Source: an uncultured Ureaplasma sp. (GTDB lineage: Bacteria; Bacillota_I; Bacilli_A; Mycoplasmatales; Mycoplasmoidaceae). From it: a DNA stretch of 52,146 nucleotides. This document shows positions 42,219-51,296 of this stretch, one piece after another (the first letter of the stretch is position 1; the number at the start of each line of letters is the position of its first letter). The notes below the pieces were generated by a model, which saw nothing but the letters and a program-made list of their open reading frames with translations, had not been told where the DNA came from and searched no databases. Made by a program: the position numbers and the translations under genes. Where the stretch lies: assembly GCA_902766725.1 (NCBI GenBank), contig CACXEQ010000007.1, positions 1 to 52,146 on the forward strand, in the 5' to 3' direction.

Positions 42219-44189
42219 CTAATTCTTCAATTTGTTTTTGGTGTAACATATCTGATTACTTTCGGAGAGTTTAGAAATTATTTTTTGATTTAGAACATTA
42301 AATGCATTTAAGTTAATTGCTTTAACAAAATTATTAGTTAATTTGCACATTTCATCGATAACTTTAAGGTTATTTATGTAATCCATTTTTAGATAAATTC
42401 TATGCAAACTATGAATTCCTTCATTTAGGATTTTATATTTATCGGAGTTTGTTTTTAAATATATATTCAAAAAATCATAAAATTGATAAAAAAATGAATT
42501 ATCTTTATTGACATTAACAAATTCTAAATAATTAATAATTTTTGCACTATCAATTTGTCCTGAACTATTTAGGCTTTGAATAATTTCATTTTTCAAATCT
42601 AATGTGTTATTTTCAACAAAACATTTAATATGTTTTGCTTGTTTATTCTTGTCTTCTTCTTGCGCAATATCACTTCAAATTAAAAATTGTTCTCAAAAAG
42701 AACGCAAACTAATACAAACTGCATTTAGATATTTTTCTCTATACTGTAAGTTTCAATTTAATTGATCAATTAATTTTTTAAAAACACTCATTGGTGAAAA
42801 ATCTTTAAAATTTTTATCTTTATTATTCTCATTAAAATTTTTATTAATTTCATGACAATTAATTTTTATGCTTTTCGCATATTTAAAACGTTCTAAGTGC
42901 AATTTAACATTAATGTCATTATTTGGTAAATCATTAACTTTTAATATTTTATCAATTTCATCAATTGTGCAATTAAATTCATCTAAATCATTTAGCTGAT
43001 TACTAGTTAATCGTGTATCAATGTTAATGTTATTTAATGTTCATAAAACTTCATGCAAGATTTTATCTTCATCATTAAAAGGGCGTGTTGTGATTTCTTT
43101 CGATTTTCATTTTTTAAAAAGAAAATTAAGTAAATTTCTACATTCATATTTTTTGTCAATAAATTTAATGTTATTAGAATCATCAAAATCTATTTTCAAA
43201 TAAGTATTATCAAATTCATCTCTTCCTATTTTTAAATATTTAATTAACAAAAACCGAACTTTATTAAATGAGTGATTCCTTTCAAGCGCAGAAATTCTAT
43301 CAGAAAAAGCAATTTCATCTAAAATATCGTTATGATTAATAAAACATATTTCATTATTTCCATAGCCTTCGTCTCTCTTTCCTGAACCAAAATAAAAGCA
43401 TGCATATATAAATTGTGCTTCTCTAAAATCATTAGCAATATCATTTGGGTGTCGATTTATTTTATTTAATATATCTTTAGCTTGATTTGTATCTTTTTTG
43501 AATCCATCTTTTGAAAATCACTGAATTAAATCAGCAAAATATTTAGCTCTTGATCACTTTCGAATACCAATCTTATCACCCGATAAATGTTTATCATAAA
43601 TAATGTTTCATAACTCATCATTTTTTTCAATTAAATGAAAAACAATTTTTTTATATTTTTTTACAAAATCGGAATTATATATAATTTCATTAATTTTTTT
43701 ATAATTTTTAAATTTTTTCTTTTCAATTTTTTCTGAATTATCATTATCACTTCAATCTTTTTCATTTTGATAAAAAGATTTTTCATTTGAATAATTGTTT
43801 TCATAATTAGTTAATTTGTGATATTCAGGCAATTTAATTGTTTTTAGAAGTAATTTTAAACATAGTAATCGTCTATTGCCTTCTGCAATAGTATATTTGT
43901 TATTCTTTAAATTTTTTACAATTCAAATTGGTTCTCTATCAATGAATCCTCGATCATTAATTGAACTAATTAAATCTAATAAATCAGAAAAATCTCCTTC
44001 ACAAGTAATTAAAGTTTGAATTACATCTTCTTGTGATTTATTTTCTTGGTTCAAAAAGTCAATGAAATTAATGTTAATATCAGTTATTCTTGAAAAACGT
44101 GGATTATTTTCTGAGAATAATATATTTGATAGGTTTTCTTCTATTGTTTTATCGTCTTTATCAACTATAGTTATTTTGTAATCACTCAT
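42219..44189 (-). CDS. Large ParB/Srx-like protein paired with a methyltransferase
   Basis: The 656-residue protein has an N-terminal ParB/sulfiredoxin-like domain (about residues 25-120): NPRFSRITD near residue 31, INDRGFIDREPIW, and the core motif EGNRRLLCLKLL at residues 103-114. The remaining 530 residues are mostly helical, with no domain I can name. Eleven or more TGA Trp codons, so it is fully adapted to code 4. It starts 4 bases after the methyltransferase stop, so both are on one mRNA. ParB/Srx folds with this motif occur in nucleases, CTPases and modification-linked proteins. The C-terminus may be frameshifted: a 27-residue continuation follows in another frame (42166-42249). Confidence 0.72.
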
Positions 44190-44193
44190 AAAT

Positions 44194-45372
44194 TTACTTC
44201 TTTCAAAATAAACAAATATTGTCAACTTTTGTAGCTTCTCCTGATTTAACACCGTTTTTTCTTGTTGATTTATTATTTGCTCGTCTGTCTTGACAACTAG
44301 CAATAAGTTTAAATTTTGCAGAATCTTTAATTTCGTTTCATAAATTTAAAAATTTATATTTGTTTTCTACATCACCAACTATCATTATTAATTTGCTATT
44401 AATTTTTAATGCTTTATATGCAGAATTCATAAAATTTGCTATGAAAATTTTATATTCTTCATAGGAATGATTATCATCAAGTTTAATTTCTTTATTTAAA
44501 TTTAGTCTGTCAAAACCAAGCAATCACAATCTTATTCAATTTTCACTAGTGTAATTAAATATGTTTAGATATGGAGGAGAAGTAATAATACAATCAAATT
44601 TAGTATTAGCAAAACTTTTATGGCAATTTAATGCATTACACATTTTTATTTGACCTATTGGATATTTTTTATGTAAATACAATTTGGAATCAGAATATAT
44701 CCTATTAATTTTTTCTTTTAATTTATCAAAAATATTCTCATTTCTTGGAAAAGAAAGATAATGTGTATTAACATAATGATCAACATAATCCTTAGACATA
44801 GAATTAGTATTACTCATACTAATTGAAAGAAATAAAGATGTACCATCTTTTCTTGATGGTCCATGAAGAATACCTAATAAACATGCCAAAATAAAAATGT
44901 CTACATTATTTAATGTTTTTCATTTTCTACCTAAACATTTTTTTAGAAAACATAGTTGTTTATAAACTTTGTAAGAAAAATAAGTTTTCATATAATCATA
45001 ATCTTTTTTATTAATGCTTATATCAGATATATGATATTTCTTTTCTAATTGATTAATTCTATTAAAAATTTTGTTTTTATTTAATGTATGTGTTTTTGAT
45101 TTAGTTATTACATATGATAAGGGATTTAAATCGGATGCATATGCATTTCTATTTAGAAGTCTAGATTCCAATAAAGTTGTCCCTCTGCCGGAAAATGGAT
45201 CATAAATTGAATCGCCTTCTTTTGTATAAGCTTGAATCAAATTATTTACCAATTTAGCTGGATACATAGCAATGTAAGAGCAAATTTCATGTAATTTACA
45301 TTTATGAAAATAATTTTTATTAAATATGACTTTTTTTAATGGAGGAAATTTATCATTATCATTTAATACCAT
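44194..45372 (-). CDS. DNA amino-methyltransferase (N4-C or N6-A)
   Basis: The 392-residue protein has the AdoMet-binding motif I DPFSGRGTTLLE (from residue 58) and catalytic motif IV TSPPYLN (SPPY at 265-268). The order I then IV, with about 200 residues between, is that of enzymes with the target-recognition part in the middle. An SPPY motif is more common in N4-cytosine enzymes, but N6-adenine is possible. Several TGA Trp codons. No ribosome binding site is visible before the start, so it may be leaderless. It lies directly upstream of the ParB-like gene; no ordinary restriction nuclease is next to it. Confidence 0.88.
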
Positions 45373-47136: not shown

Positions 47137-47919
47137 TTATTTACTATTTACTTTTCTAAATATATCCTTAATTTCCTCTCAAGTTTTCTTTTCAAAAACT
47201 TTTATTGAATGTATAAATCGATGACAATTAGGACATAAGCCTTTTAAATCCTTATGAATATCTGTTTTTCGTTCTCCACATGCAATAGGTTTTAAATGAT
47301 GAATGTCAATGATGTGACTTGCACCATCAGCTTTTAAATAAGACTTACCACATAATTTACAATCATATCCATATTCATCTAAATATGCATCTTTTAATTT
47401 CCGTGAACGACCGCGAAATTGAATTGTAATATTTTTAGTTATTTCACCTTCTTTATATATATCAGCTACATTTTTAATTTCTTGATCAAGTAAGTTTACT
47501 TGATTTGTAAAATTTTTAATTAAGTCTCATCGAATGTTTGGGTTATTACATTTATTTAATATTAAGCCACCTTTAGCTGCTCAACGCTGTCTGCCATTTT
47601 TGCCATTCGTAAATTGTGTTACTATATCCAAGCATTTATAAGCATTTTTTATGTAGTATCCATGAATTTGATTGGAATATAAAGAGCAAATCGTGAATTT
47701 ATATGTCAATAAACTCGTATTATTTTTAACTTCAAATACGTATATGCAGTCATTAGGCTGAAGTTTAGAGGCAAAAGAATATATTTTATTAGGTGATTCT
47801 AATCATTCATAATTTTTATCGTTTATTCCTCTAATATTAATAATTCCAATATAACCTTGACTTATCCAAGATTTTGGATTATTAATTATGTTTCCGATTT
47901 TTATTCAAATAGATGTCAT
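47137..47919 (-). CDS. HNH endonuclease
   Basis: The 260-residue protein ends in a zinc-bound HNH domain: YDCKLCGKSYLKADG, then IDIHHLKPIACGERK with the catalytic His, then LKGLCPNCHRFIH. The N-terminal 110 residues (WISQGYIGIINIRGIN, YSFASKLQPNDCIYVFEV) look like a small beta-rich reader domain, possibly of EVE/PUA type, which in other nucleases reads modified bases; that part is inference. Five TGA Trp codons. It starts 21 bases after the other HNH gene and is the last of the three-gene restriction module. Confidence 0.85.
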
Positions 47920-47940
47920 ATAAAGAACTAATTTCAATTA

Positions 47941-48918
47941 TTATTTAAGGAATATTGTATTATTTCTAAATTTGAGAAATTCTTGCATTTGTTTCCAATC
48001 ATTATCGTAATTTGATTTAATTGTCTTAAAATTGTCAGAATTTTTTATAATCCATTCTTTATCGGTATTAATTAAAAAATCAGAAATAAGCAATTTTCCA
48101 TCATTTTCATTAAAAGATATAAATCCAGCATCAAAAAATTTATGTAACGTAGCTGACAATAATAATCCATTATTTTTATTAAATTTTTCTTTATTATTGC
48201 ATTGAATAAATGGTTTAATGTGTGCTGCTTCTAAAACGCTTTCTTGTTTTAACTTTGTAATAATGCAGGCTTTATCACGTGATAGCAATTTTTCACGTCA
48301 ATCTCTTTGTCTCTTTCTTTGTTGAATTGATTTCTTATTTTTCTTAGCTTTTATTTTTTCAAAATACGAAGTTTGAAGAAGTTCAAAGTCTACTGTTGGT
48401 ATCATAAAAATATAATTATTGCCCTTAATTTTATAGAAAGTAATTTTACATGTGTATGGTATTGCTATTTTAAAAATTATATCTTTATATAAATTAAATT
48501 CCAAACCTTGTTCGTGGTATCTGTATGTTGCCGTTGTAAAATTTTCTTCAATTAAGTCATCATCTTTAAAGATTTTATAGTTTTCTTTAAACTTATTTAA
48601 AATAATTTCTCAGTTTTTAATGCTAATTTTTTTGTAATTGTTAATATCATTGATATAAATTTGTTTCAAATTGTTAATGAATTGTAATAAATGCTTTTTA
48701 TAAAAACAAATTTTTCCTTGATAGGAAAAATCATCATTTGTTGAAACCCTTCCTCTTGCATTCTTAAATCCTCTTTTCTCGCAACCATCAAAAATAAATG
48801 AATTAGATTTAAATTTTAACTTTGATTGACCGTGATTTCTAGCTTCTTTTTGTTTATTAGATTCTGTAACATATTCATTAGAAATAACAATAGTTCTTGT
48901 TTTGTTTATAAAATTCAT
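47941..48918 (-). CDS. Restriction-type HNH endonuclease
   Basis: The 325-residue protein has a C-terminal HNH domain of the HNH_2 kind: ITKLKQESVLEAAHIKPF with His233, NNGLLLSATLHKFFDAGFIS with His259 and Asp263. In many bacteria this domain sits in type II restriction enzymes next to a cytosine methyltransferase, as here. The N-terminal 200 residues have no known motif and are likely to bind DNA. Two TGA and some TGG Trp codons. It begins 3 bases after the methyltransferase stop and is intact. Confidence 0.85.
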
Positions 48919-48921
48919 AAA

Positions 48922-49979
48922 TTACTTTCACCCCATTACTTTACAGATATTTTTAAAAATATAAAATAATGTATCCACAACAATTGAATTGCCACTTTGC
49001 TTATAAATTTGTGTATTATTAACAACAATTTTAAACGATTCTGGAAAGCCCATTAATCTTAAGCATTCCCTAGGAGTTAATCTCCTAATATTGCTCTTAT
49101 TAACAGTGACATAGTTATCCCTTGATGCATAATGATATTTTCAGCTACTACTTAATATAGTTTTCGCAATTTCTGGGTCTGGAGCGCCATATCTTAACAC
49201 AGTTTTTTTTAATTTATCAGATAGGATGAATTTATTTAAATACTCTTTTGTTACGAAATCGCCCCTCAAATTATATTCTTGACATCTAGCTTGACAAAGA
49301 GCAATTTCACCATTGACTTGCGTAAACTTCTTTTTTAATCTTTCAGTATTAGTTATTCCTTTTGCCGCTTTTTTGCTAACTGCATGTTCTGGATAAAATA
49401 CTTTATCCAAAAAATCAACCATTTTGTATTTAAGTTTAATTGGTTTAGGAAAAGAGAAAGCACATTTGTTTTGAAAACCTACTAAAAATAATCGATTTCT
49501 ATTTTGAGGTATTCCATAATCTTTTGCATTTAATATTTTTCAATGTAAATCATAATTTAGTGTTTTAAACATTGGAAAAATAATTTTATTTCACACTTTT
49601 CCATTTTTAAGTGTTATTAATCCTTTAACATTTTCAAAGATGAAAACCTTTGGCTGTATTTCTTTAAGAATTCTTATATATTGTTCAATTAATTTTCCTC
49701 TTGGATCATCTAATCCTTTTCGATATCCTGCAATTGAAAAAGATTGGCAAGGCGACCCCCCACAAGAATATCGATTTTATTCTTATATTTTGAACCTTTC
49801 ATTTTTACGATATCATCATATCATGCATCGTACTTGTAGTTAGCATCATATGATTGCTTGCAATATTTGTCAATATCGTTAGCAAACACAATTTTATGTT
49901 TAATTTTCGATCTTTTAACAGCTTGTTCAAAAGCACCTATACCAGAAAATAATGTTGCAATTTTTAACTGTGTAGTCAT
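48922..49979 (-). pseudogene. DNA cytosine-C5 methyltransferase, one-base frameshift
   Basis: Two frames together give a complete 352-residue C5 methyltransferase: motif I LFSGIGAFEQA, IV GGSPCQSFSIAG (catalytic Cys78), VI FENVKGL, VIII QNRNRLFLVGF and X QSGNSIVVD. The frame changes in a six-G run on the minus strand (49756-49761), within the codons for VGG just before SPCQ. As sequenced, translation from the ATG stops at 49710 after 89 residues; a seventh G, or one -1 slip on GGG-GGG, gives exactly the family sequence. The rest shows no other damage. The promoter spacing suggests a leaderless mRNA. Confidence 0.88.
49756..49761 (-). repeat. G6 tract in methyltransferase gene
   Basis: Six G on the coding strand, exceptional in this AT-rich DNA, exactly at the point where the reading frame changes. 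Confidence 0.8.
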
Positions 49980-50099: not shown

Positions 50100-50798
50100 A
50101 TGTCATCAAAAGAATATATTCAACCCGATTTAAATAAAAGATGTTTTACATGTCCACAATGCGGAGAACTTGTTAATCAAGATATTGAATTTATAGCATG
50201 TGCTAATGGAAACAAGCTCGAACAATTTAAGTTCATTAATAATAGTGAAGCAATATATGCTTCCACTTGTTTAAGATGTCGTAAAACAACTTTTTGAGTA
50301 TCAAATTATAAAAATGAAAAATTTGACAATCAAAAGATAATATATCCTGAATATCATATTAGTAAACCTATTCCAAAACATTTATCAGATAAATCTAAAT
50401 TTTTTTGGAATAAAGCATGTTTTCATTATGGTAAAGATTGACGTGTAACTATGACATATTTAAGATTATGTATTGAAAATATTCTCCGCGAATATTTTAA
50501 AGAGTCAAGTACATCATTAGGTAATTTAATTAAAAAACTTATTGCTTCTGAATTATATAAAACTTCACCGTACTCTAGTTGTCCACAATTAATAAACAAT
50601 TTTTTATCTGATTCTACACATTCTACTTCTTCGATTGATTATGAGAAAGAAACATTAGCTGATGATGTTGATCATGTTATGAATTTTATTAATGATTGTA
50701 TTTATCGACTATATGAATGCCAAGAAACTATAGATAAGTTCAATCAAAAACAAACAAAAAGAAATAATCAAATTTTGAATCAAAAAAAACAAAAATAA
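50100..50798 (+). CDS. Zinc-ribbon protein with DUF4145-like domain
   Basis: The 232-residue protein starts with a zinc ribbon (CPQCGE near residue 19, CLRCRK near 59), then YPEYHISKPIPKHL and a helical domain whose pattern (ALxxCGxAWRxxxxxLRxxIENIL type: RVTMTYLRLCIENILREYF) resembles DUF4145, a HEPN-related domain often found next to restriction systems. The R-x4-H motif itself is not seen. Two TGA Trp codons. It is divergent from the methyltransferase gene with a 120-base spacer, and shares a terminator with the convergent HEPN gene. Confidence 0.7.
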
Positions 50799-50852: not shown

Positions 50853-51296
50853 TTAACATATTTGATTATAAATTTTAACGATATTTTCACACATTTCTGC
50901 AATTTCGTTTTTGTTTTTATTTAACTGTGTACATAAATCATTGCATTTATTGTAATCATCATGTTTAGCATCTAAATAATCAATAAAAAACCGATGAATG
51001 TAGTAGTTTCTTATTTTAGTCATATCTTTTAAGTATGAGTAATCATATTTTGAAAATCAATGATCATTATCAGAATAATCTGATTCCACTAGAAGTTTAA
51101 TTATATTACCTAATGTTTTATCTTTAATGTGTTTATAATTTTTATTTGGATTTCCTTTACATTTATAAGAATAAATTCATTTTAAACAATATTCAATAAT
51201 TTGATAATCTTTAAATATTGATATCAAGTTATCATTTACTTTTTGCTCTGAAATATAGAAAAAACCAAAAGGTTTAAAAATGCTACTTATACCCAT
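50853..51296 (-). CDS. HEPN-type protein with R-x4-H motif
   Basis: The 147-residue, helix-rich protein has the sequence DMTKIRNYYIHRFF at about residues 87-100, containing R-N-x-x-x-H, the catalytic signature of HEPN ribonucleases found in toxins and Abi defence proteins. Two TGA Trp codons. It stands alone, with no nucleotidyltransferase antitoxin gene beside it. No ribosome binding site is visible. It is convergent with the DUF4145-like gene. Confidence 0.6.

What the first reader, a model, noticed from the sequence alone, without database searches (positions are those of the whole stretch)
42219..45372. Candidate new modification-linked system: methyltransferase plus large ParB/Srx-like protein
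Two genes, 4 bases apart on one mRNA, pair an SPPY-type DNA methyltransferase with a 656-residue protein carrying an EGNRR ParB/Srx core and a long helical region of unknown fold. No standard restriction subunit is adjacent. ParB/Srx folds include nucleases and CTPases, so the protein could be a nuclease or sensor controlled by methylation. It sits in an island with two HNH nucleases and HEPN genes.
Basis: partly seen in the sequence, partly recalled or inferred. Interest (0 to 1): 0.65.

Follow-up and report, generated by a model that had tools for sequence, protein, structure and literature searches.

The report
Methyltransferase paired with ParB–HEPN-like defence protein
In a mycoplasma-like bacterium, a DNA-marking enzyme travels with a protein that joins a ParB-type switch to a probable RNA-cutting domain; this is most likely a variant of the known anti-phage system PD-λ-5 with a different marking enzyme.

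Summary
An N6_N4-class SPPY methyltransferase (392 aa) is followed 4 bases later by a 656-aa protein with a ParB/Srx core (NPR…EGNRR). PADLOC and alignment tie the large protein to PD-Lambda-5_A, the effector of the E. coli anti-phage system PD-λ-5. The 'helical region of unknown fold' ends in an invariant pair, R496 and H593 (R-x3-E … L-N-x3-H), which I read as a HEPN-like RNase site. That reading comes from the sequence; the fold was not confirmed.

The pair is a real unit. In 320 genomes of the order, 29 carry the large protein strongly, and 24 of those have the SPPY methyltransferase next to it. Eight of ten loci found afterwards with the ParB profile alone also have it. The two proteins' divergences correlate (Mantel r 0.68, p 5e-5). 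Canonical PD-λ-5 pairs the same kind of protein with an unrelated D12 methyltransferase, so this is a PD-λ-5-like system with an exchanged methyltransferase, not a new kind.

Most likely mechanism: the methyltransferase marks self, and the ParB–HEPN protein halts growth by RNA cleavage when unmarked DNA appears. Function is untested.

The parts
44194..45372 (-). N6_N4-class DNA methyltransferase, 392 aa (read with TGA=Trp)
   Evidence: PF01555 1.5e-18; motif I and SPPY conserved in 11 relatives; nearest solved relatives by profile are M.PvuII (N4-cytosine), other N4-C and N6-A MTases
45175..45201 (-). Motif I (DPFSGRGTT), S-adenosylmethionine binding
   Evidence: D58, F60-S61-G62-R63-G64 and T66 invariant in alignment A3
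44569..44580 (-). Catalytic motif IV SPPY
   Evidence: T264 to L269 invariant in alignment A3
42219..44189 (-). ParB/Srx + HEPN-like protein, 656 aa (read with TGA=Trp); ATG 4 bases after the MTase stop
   Evidence: PADLOC PD-Lambda-5_A, 11 models, best 2.6e-14 over residues 52-121; hhalign to three canonical PD-Lambda-5_A: prob 98.1, E 1.2e-13, about the first third only
43830..44132 (-). ParB/Srx-like core, residues about 20-120
   Evidence: TIGR00180 3.9e-4; same domain in a canonical homologue matches ParB-CDP structures, Foldseek prob 0.98-1.00; A8 profile hits ParB 4umk_A at 8.4e-4
43869..43883 (-). EGNRR box (residues 103-107)
   Evidence: G104 N105 R106 R107 invariant in 21 sequences, E103 nearly so
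42261..42782 (-). C-terminal HEPN-like domain, residues about 470-643 (helical)
   Evidence: Invariant R496 and H593, nearly invariant N589; kept in 7 of 8 proteins added later; a helix ends at the His in the model, but pLDDT is mostly below 66 over residues 500-600
42690..42704 (-). R496-x3-E500, first half of the putative active site
   Evidence: R invariant in 21 of 21; R plus E or D at 500 in 7 of 8 out-of-sample proteins
42411..42425 (-). N589-x3-H593, second half of the putative active site
   Evidence: H invariant, N in 19 of 21; relatives G193 and G217 read R-N-x3-H here, the canonical HEPN Rx4H

Best explanation
A two-gene, PD-lambda-5-like defence operon. The N6_N4-class methyltransferase modifies a specific sequence in the host's own DNA and so marks self. 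The partner is an effector with an N-terminal ParB/Srx domain, probably a nucleotide- and DNA-responsive switch, a helical linker, and a C-terminal HEPN-like domain. While host DNA is modified, or while the methyltransferase is present, the effector is held off. When unmodified phage or mobile-element DNA appears, or the methyltransferase is overwhelmed, the effector is released and cleaves RNA, stopping growth. Shown here: gene anatomy, conserved linkage, co-divergence, homology of the ParB part to PD-Lambda-5_A, and invariance of R496/H593. Inferred: the HEPN fold and RNase activity, sensing through methylation, and the anti-phage role.
For: PD-Lambda-5_A matches. In the 21-protein alignment, at 18-36% identity to P0001, only the start Met, R31, GNRR, R496 and H593 are invariant, and three canonical PD-Lambda-5_A proteins share them. 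Two members carry the full HEPN R-N-x3-H (Rx4H) at the same place. 24 of 29 genomes keep the MTase adjacent although gene order and orientation change, and 8 of 10 loci found later with the ParB profile alone do so. Mantel r 0.68, p 5e-5, n = 15. One homologue without an MTase neighbour (G555) has lost both R496 and H593. Presence is sporadic in the window's own genus: 3 of the 6 genus members listed (G000, G594, G597) have it, and G594's copy is broken. Experimental precedent: PD-lambda-5 protects E. coli and was read by its authors as a compacted RM+Abi system (PMC9519451); it is described elsewhere as HEPN-bearing (PMC11811056).
Against: The HEPN fold is not confirmed. No significant Pfam, PDB or Foldseek match to HEPN was found, and the C-terminal model is poor. 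The canonical Rx4-6H arginine is absent in P0001 (Leu588). The PADLOC match and hhalign cover only the N-terminal part. The MTase is not the D12 enzyme of PD-lambda-5. Some homologues stand without the MTase (G190, G378, G555, G562), and some MTases stand without the effector (G205, G262, two prophages). No phage or methylome data exist.
Confidence: 0.66

Rival explanations
1. Restriction-modification in which the ParB/Srx core itself is the DNA-cutting subunit and the C-terminal region is only a DNA-binding or assembly scaffold.
For: GNRR box invariant. Some ParB/Srx proteins nick DNA (Maindola 2014 and Johnson 1999, as cited in PMC12839542). The partner is a sequence-type DNA methyltransferase.
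Against: The invariant R496/H593 pair with near-invariant N589, far from the ParB core, looks like a separate active site. In Mesorhizobium (L092) and IMG/VR (L111) operons the ParB-like protein lacks that domain and a third, separate gene is present, which suggests the ParB part alone is not the effector.
Confidence: 0.15
2. Toxin-antitoxin-like addiction: the methyltransferase protein, or the methylation it lays down, neutralises the ParB-HEPN toxin and so stabilises mobile islands; any phage defence is secondary.
For: Tight two-gene linkage with variable order. Sporadic presence and several decayed copies (G048, G138, G212, G594). Mobile-element-like or ParA-like neighbours in a few loci (G026, G654, G205, G262).
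Against: The closest studied relative, PD-lambda-5, gives broad phage protection (PMC9519451). Some genomes carry the large protein without the MTase, with R and H intact (G378).
Confidence: 0.13
3. Partition, replication or housekeeping function: a ParB-type segregation or regulatory protein that happens to sit beside a methyltransferase.
For: Weak ParB_N/TIGR00180 hits; a ParA-like gene nearby in G026 and G654.
Against: No match to the rest of a partition ParB beyond the N-terminal core; found in only 33 of 320 genomes of the order; variable neighbourhoods; the recurrent neighbour is the MTase, not parA.
Confidence: 0.04

Closest known systems
PD-lambda-5 (PADLOC PD-Lambda-5_A + _B; Vassallo et al. 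2022, PMC9519451)
   Same: Two adjacent genes, one a DNA methyltransferase; ParB-like N-terminal part (2.6e-14; hhalign prob 98); invariant R and LNx3H pair in the C-terminal part
   Different: Its methyltransferase is MethyltransfD12/DPPY (PF02086), with no detectable similarity to the N6_N4/SPPY enzyme here (BLASTP E 0.87); its A protein is 446-513 aa in the cases seen, against 656; the match outside the N-terminal part is below profile detection
HEPN families tied to ParB and DNA methylases (ParB-HEPN fusions such as Saro_3948; MAE_28990 in operon with ParB nuclease and DNA methylase; Anantharaman et al. 2013, PMC3710099)
   Same: Same combination of parts; proposed role as an RNase held in check by the modification system
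   Different: I could not test whether this family is one of those listed there; in P0001 the arginine of Rx4-6H is displaced from the Leu588 position to R496
ParB-like + unknown gene + SPPY methyltransferase operons (Mesorhizobium plasmid L092; IMG/VR contig L111)
   Same: Related ParB-like protein (7e-10 and 6e-10) and related MTase (8e-42 and 7e-60) in one operon
   Different: The ParB-like protein is short and lacks R/H; a middle gene with a PD-(D/E)XK-like 'DGKLDVVV...QCKTG' pattern (by eye in L111; L092 lacks the lysine) may be the effector
Type IV GmrSD/BrxU (DUF262 + DUF1524)
   Same: ParB/Srx-type NTPase domain in a defence protein
   Different: No DUF262 or DUF1524 match; only E 2.5 to BrxU by fold

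Membership tests
PD-lambda-5 (PADLOC definition: A + B adjacent) | A component: homologue of PD-Lambda-5_A | tested here: met
   11 PADLOC models, best 2.6e-14, but residues 52-121 only; hhalign prob 98.1 over the N-terminal part; shared R and LNx3H motif by alignment
PD-lambda-5 (PADLOC definition: A + B adjacent) | B component: D12-class DNA methyltransferase | tested here: not met
   Canonical B proteins hit PF02086 and PDLC04018; P0002 hits PF01555 and no PD-Lambda-5_B among the matches shown; BLASTP to a B protein E 0.87
PD-lambda-5 (PADLOC definition: A + B adjacent) | Anti-phage activity | not testable with these tools
   Needs phage challenge
ParB/Srx superfamily | ParB-N fold with GxxR-type nucleotide box | tested here: met
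   GNRR invariant; canonical homologue's N-domain matches ParB-CDP structures at prob 0.98-1.00, though E is 3e-3 or worse; profile hit 4umk_A 8.4e-4. Window protein alone only E 0.42 to Noc
HEPN superfamily | Rx4-6H motif at the end of helix 3 | tested here: inconclusive
   P0001 has L-N-x3-H at a helix end with R elsewhere (R496); relatives G193/G217 have exact R-N-x3-H
HEPN superfamily | Four-helix HEPN fold | tested here: inconclusive
   C-terminal domain all-helical but low confidence in two models; no significant HEPN hit by Foldseek
Type II restriction-modification | Cognate restriction endonuclease gene paired with the MTase | tested here: not met
   No REase-family match in P0001. The HNH genes about 1.8 kb upstream abut a C5 MTase and look like a separate module
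DndB / GmrSD-type ParB proteins | DUF262 match or Dnd gene context | tested here: not met
   No such match in Pfam or PADLOC scans; no dnd-like genes seen among the neighbouring open frames scanned

The most novel reading that the evidence does not exclude
The pair belongs to a wider, unrecognised family of modification-gated systems built around one ParB-like switch. Both partners can be exchanged: the methyltransferase (D12 or N6_N4 class) and the effector (a fused HEPN-like RNase in mycoplasmas and Bacilli, or a separate PD-(D/E)XK-like nuclease in Mesorhizobium/IMG-VR operons). The ParB domain would read DNA modification state and license either RNA or DNA cleavage.
Probability: 0.3. Interest if true: 0.66.

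Novelty: new variant of a known kind. Interest (0 to 1): 0.46.

Why it matters
PD-λ-5 is active but, in the papers I could read, mechanistically unexplained. This variant suggests that its ParB–HEPN-like protein can work with an unrelated methyltransferase, which argues that the effector senses modification, or the lack of it, rather than one enzyme, and it names the residues to mutate (GNRR, R496, H593). It also adds a recurrent defence-type locus in mycoplasmas, which have few annotated defence systems. The A and B models of PD-λ-5 in PADLOC would not both match it, because of the different methyltransferase.

Tried and rejected
The search for related loci with P0001 in genome contigs gave no relative, and tblastn of P0001 in plasmids and phages gave none; whole-genome profile searches worked instead. 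Pfam gave no family for the C-terminal part of P0001 or its homologues. PDB sequence searches gave no HEPN hit. Two AlphaFold2 jobs: the window protein (pLDDT 72.5, C-terminus poor) and a canonical PD-Lambda-5_A (pLDDT 55, good ParB domain only). Foldseek supports ParB for the canonical protein but gave nothing significant in the PDB for the window protein; one BFVD hit to an uncharacterised Vibrio phage protein, E 1.6e-4, was not followed. tblastn with a canonical PD-Lambda-5_A in phages and plasmids found nothing. Promoter-like sites are fewer than in shuffles, so not usable; no Rfam family. Rejected: housekeeping ParB, GmrSD, ordinary type II RM.

Full report
What is there. The window comes from a low-GC, Mycoplasma-like genome (G000, 614,885 bases in 38 contigs, 82% complete). 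Under table 11 the ATP synthase genes and the two finding genes are broken; under code 4 (TGA=Trp) they open. The two genes use 15 TGA and no TGG codons. The methyltransferase covers 45372–44194 and the large protein 44189–42219, both on the minus strand, with 4 bases between.

The methyltransferase. It matches PF01555 N6_N4_Mtase (1.5e-18) and generic PADLOC type II MTase models (best 9.5e-28). Motif I (DPFSGRGTT) comes first and SPPY about 200 residues later; both are conserved in 11 relatives. Nearest solved relatives by profile are N4-cytosine M.PvuII and several N4-C and N6-A enzymes, so the modified base cannot be told.

The large protein. Pfam is nearly silent (ParB_N 0.14), but 11 PADLOC PD-Lambda-5_A models match residues around 34–172, best 2.6e-14. 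Twelve of 13 mycoplasma relatives match one PD-Lambda-5_A model. hhalign of the mycoplasma family against three full-length PD-Lambda-5_A proteins from code-11 Bacilli gives probability 98.1 and E 1.2e-13, but only for about the first third. In a 21-sequence alignment (18 mycoplasma, 3 canonical) the invariant positions are the start Met, R31, G104-N105-R106-R107, R496 and H593; N29, P30, L73, E103, H201, G208, W212 and N589 are nearly so. The distance between R and H ranges from 68 to 205 residues, so their conservation is not a by-product of general similarity.

Why HEPN. In the HEPN superfamily the active site is Rx4-6H at the end of helix 3, the residue after R is usually N, D or H, and an acidic residue often contributes (PMC3710099). 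Here the conserved string is L-N-x3-H, where the Leu stands in the place of the Arg, and in homologues G193 and G217 it is exactly R-N-x3-H. R496 with E500 is in a preceding helix. In eight proteins found later, seven keep R496, E/D500, N589 and H593; the eighth (G555) has K and N in place of R and H, and it is also one without an SPPY methyltransferase neighbour. Vassallo et al. called PD-λ-5 a compacted RM+Abi system, and a later paper lists it among HEPN systems (PMC11811056). The fold itself is not confirmed: both AlphaFold models are poor in this region, and Foldseek gives no significant HEPN match.

ParB core. The canonical homologue's N-terminal domain is well predicted and Foldseek matches ParB and Noc structures, several with bound nucleotide, at probability up to 1.00, with E-values of 3e-3 or worse. 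The A8 profile finds ParB 4umk_A at 8.4e-4. For the window protein alone the best PDB match is Noc at E 0.42.

Linkage. In 392 genomes of the phylum, 18 have an intact close relative of the methyltransferase, and 16 of these lie next to a ParB-like gene. Five of those 16 loci were found only through the methyltransferase, so that count alone is biased. The 320 genomes of the order were therefore searched with the ParB profile: 33 match and 29 strongly. Twenty-four of the 29 have the SPPY methyltransferase adjacent. Of ten loci not seen before, eight have it. The exceptions are G190, G378, G555 and G562, all of one genus, and G314, where contigs end. Order varies (methyltransferase first, ParB first, or divergent), yet identities co-vary (Mantel r 0.68, p 5e-5, 15 pairs). 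In the window's genus, G597 has an intact pair and G594 a frame-broken one, and three other members have none; such patchiness is usual for defence genes.

Relation to PD-λ-5. In G311, G181 and G213 (A and B both matched in PADLOC) and in G400 and G469 (A by PADLOC profile search, B by Pfam) a PD-Lambda-5_A-type protein lies beside a MethyltransfD12 protein. The methyltransferase here is of another class, with no detectable similarity (E 0.87). So a defining component of PD-λ-5 was tested and not met. I describe the pair as PD-λ-5-like, working on the same plan, with an exchanged methyltransferase.

A wider pattern. A Mesorhizobium plasmid (L092) and an IMG/VR contig (L111) carry ParB-like – unknown – SPPY methyltransferase operons. 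Their ParB-like proteins also match PD-Lambda-5_A (1.4e-16 and 3.6e-20) but lack the C-terminal R/H. Their middle genes are related to each other and share a pattern that by eye resembles PD-(D/E)XK in L111 (…DGKLDVVV…QCKTG…), less so in L092, with no family or PDB hit. This hints that the ParB switch is constant and the effector exchangeable. A related methyltransferase also sits with HerA-type (DUF87) and NurA genes in Deferribacter.

Mechanism. Most likely, methylation marks self, the ParB domain holds the effector off, and unmethylated DNA or loss of methylation releases a HEPN-like RNase that stops growth. PrrC, held in check by a type Ic R-M system, is an experimental parallel for a modification-linked HEPN (described in PMC3710099). 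Shown: anatomy, linkage, co-divergence, ParB homology and invariant residues. Inferred: fold, RNase activity, sensing and defence.

Novelty. ParB–HEPN fusions, and HEPN in operon with ParB and a DNA methylase, were listed in 2013, and PD-λ-5 was shown to defend E. coli in 2022. The new parts are the different methyltransferase class, the recurrent presence in mycoplasmas, the displaced arginine, and the hint of effector exchange. I rate it a new variant of a known kind.

Noticed in passing
window 48922-49979 (-): A C5 cytosine methyltransferase is complete except for one frame change just before the PCQ motif; with the two HNH genes downstream of it (47137-48918) it looks like a separate restriction-modification module. 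The frame change may be an assembly error or a real mutation.
   Followed up: partly
window 50100-50798 (+): A 232-aa gene matches PADLOC PD-T7-4 at 2e-13 (profile 2-136 of 211), another anti-phage family; a neighbour at 50853-51296 has only a non-significant Apea-HEPN match.
   Followed up: no
L089 and L090 (Mycoplasma anserisalpingitidis prophage records): Prophages carry the same kind of SPPY methyltransferase without a ParB partner; it might protect phage DNA against the host's pair.
   Followed up: no
L091 4953-11164 (Deferribacter plasmid): A relative of the SPPY methyltransferase is followed by HerA-type (DUF87) and NurA genes, with two TnpB/IS200 elements nearby; the methyltransferase seems to pair with various effectors.
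   Followed up: no
L092 2811-6083 and L111 2862-6131: Three-gene operons: ParB-like protein without the HEPN-like residues, an unknown protein with a PD-(D/E)XK-like pattern (in L111), and an SPPY methyltransferase.
   Followed up: partly
L102 1486-3348 (G458): A 620-aa protein with an N-terminal HATPase_c_3 domain has a C-terminal stretch matching the last third of PD-Lambda-5_A (3.6e-10), so this C-terminal domain may be reused with other sensors.
   Followed up: no
L043 and L044 (G190), several genes of 679-687 aa: G190 carries a duplicated region with several ParB-like paralogues in tandem and no SPPY methyltransferase beside them.
   Followed up: no
L038 8125-12310 and L155 703-4883 (G378, G562): ParB-like genes without the SPPY methyltransferase lie close to a C5-type methyltransferase-like gene and a large unknown protein.
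   Followed up: no
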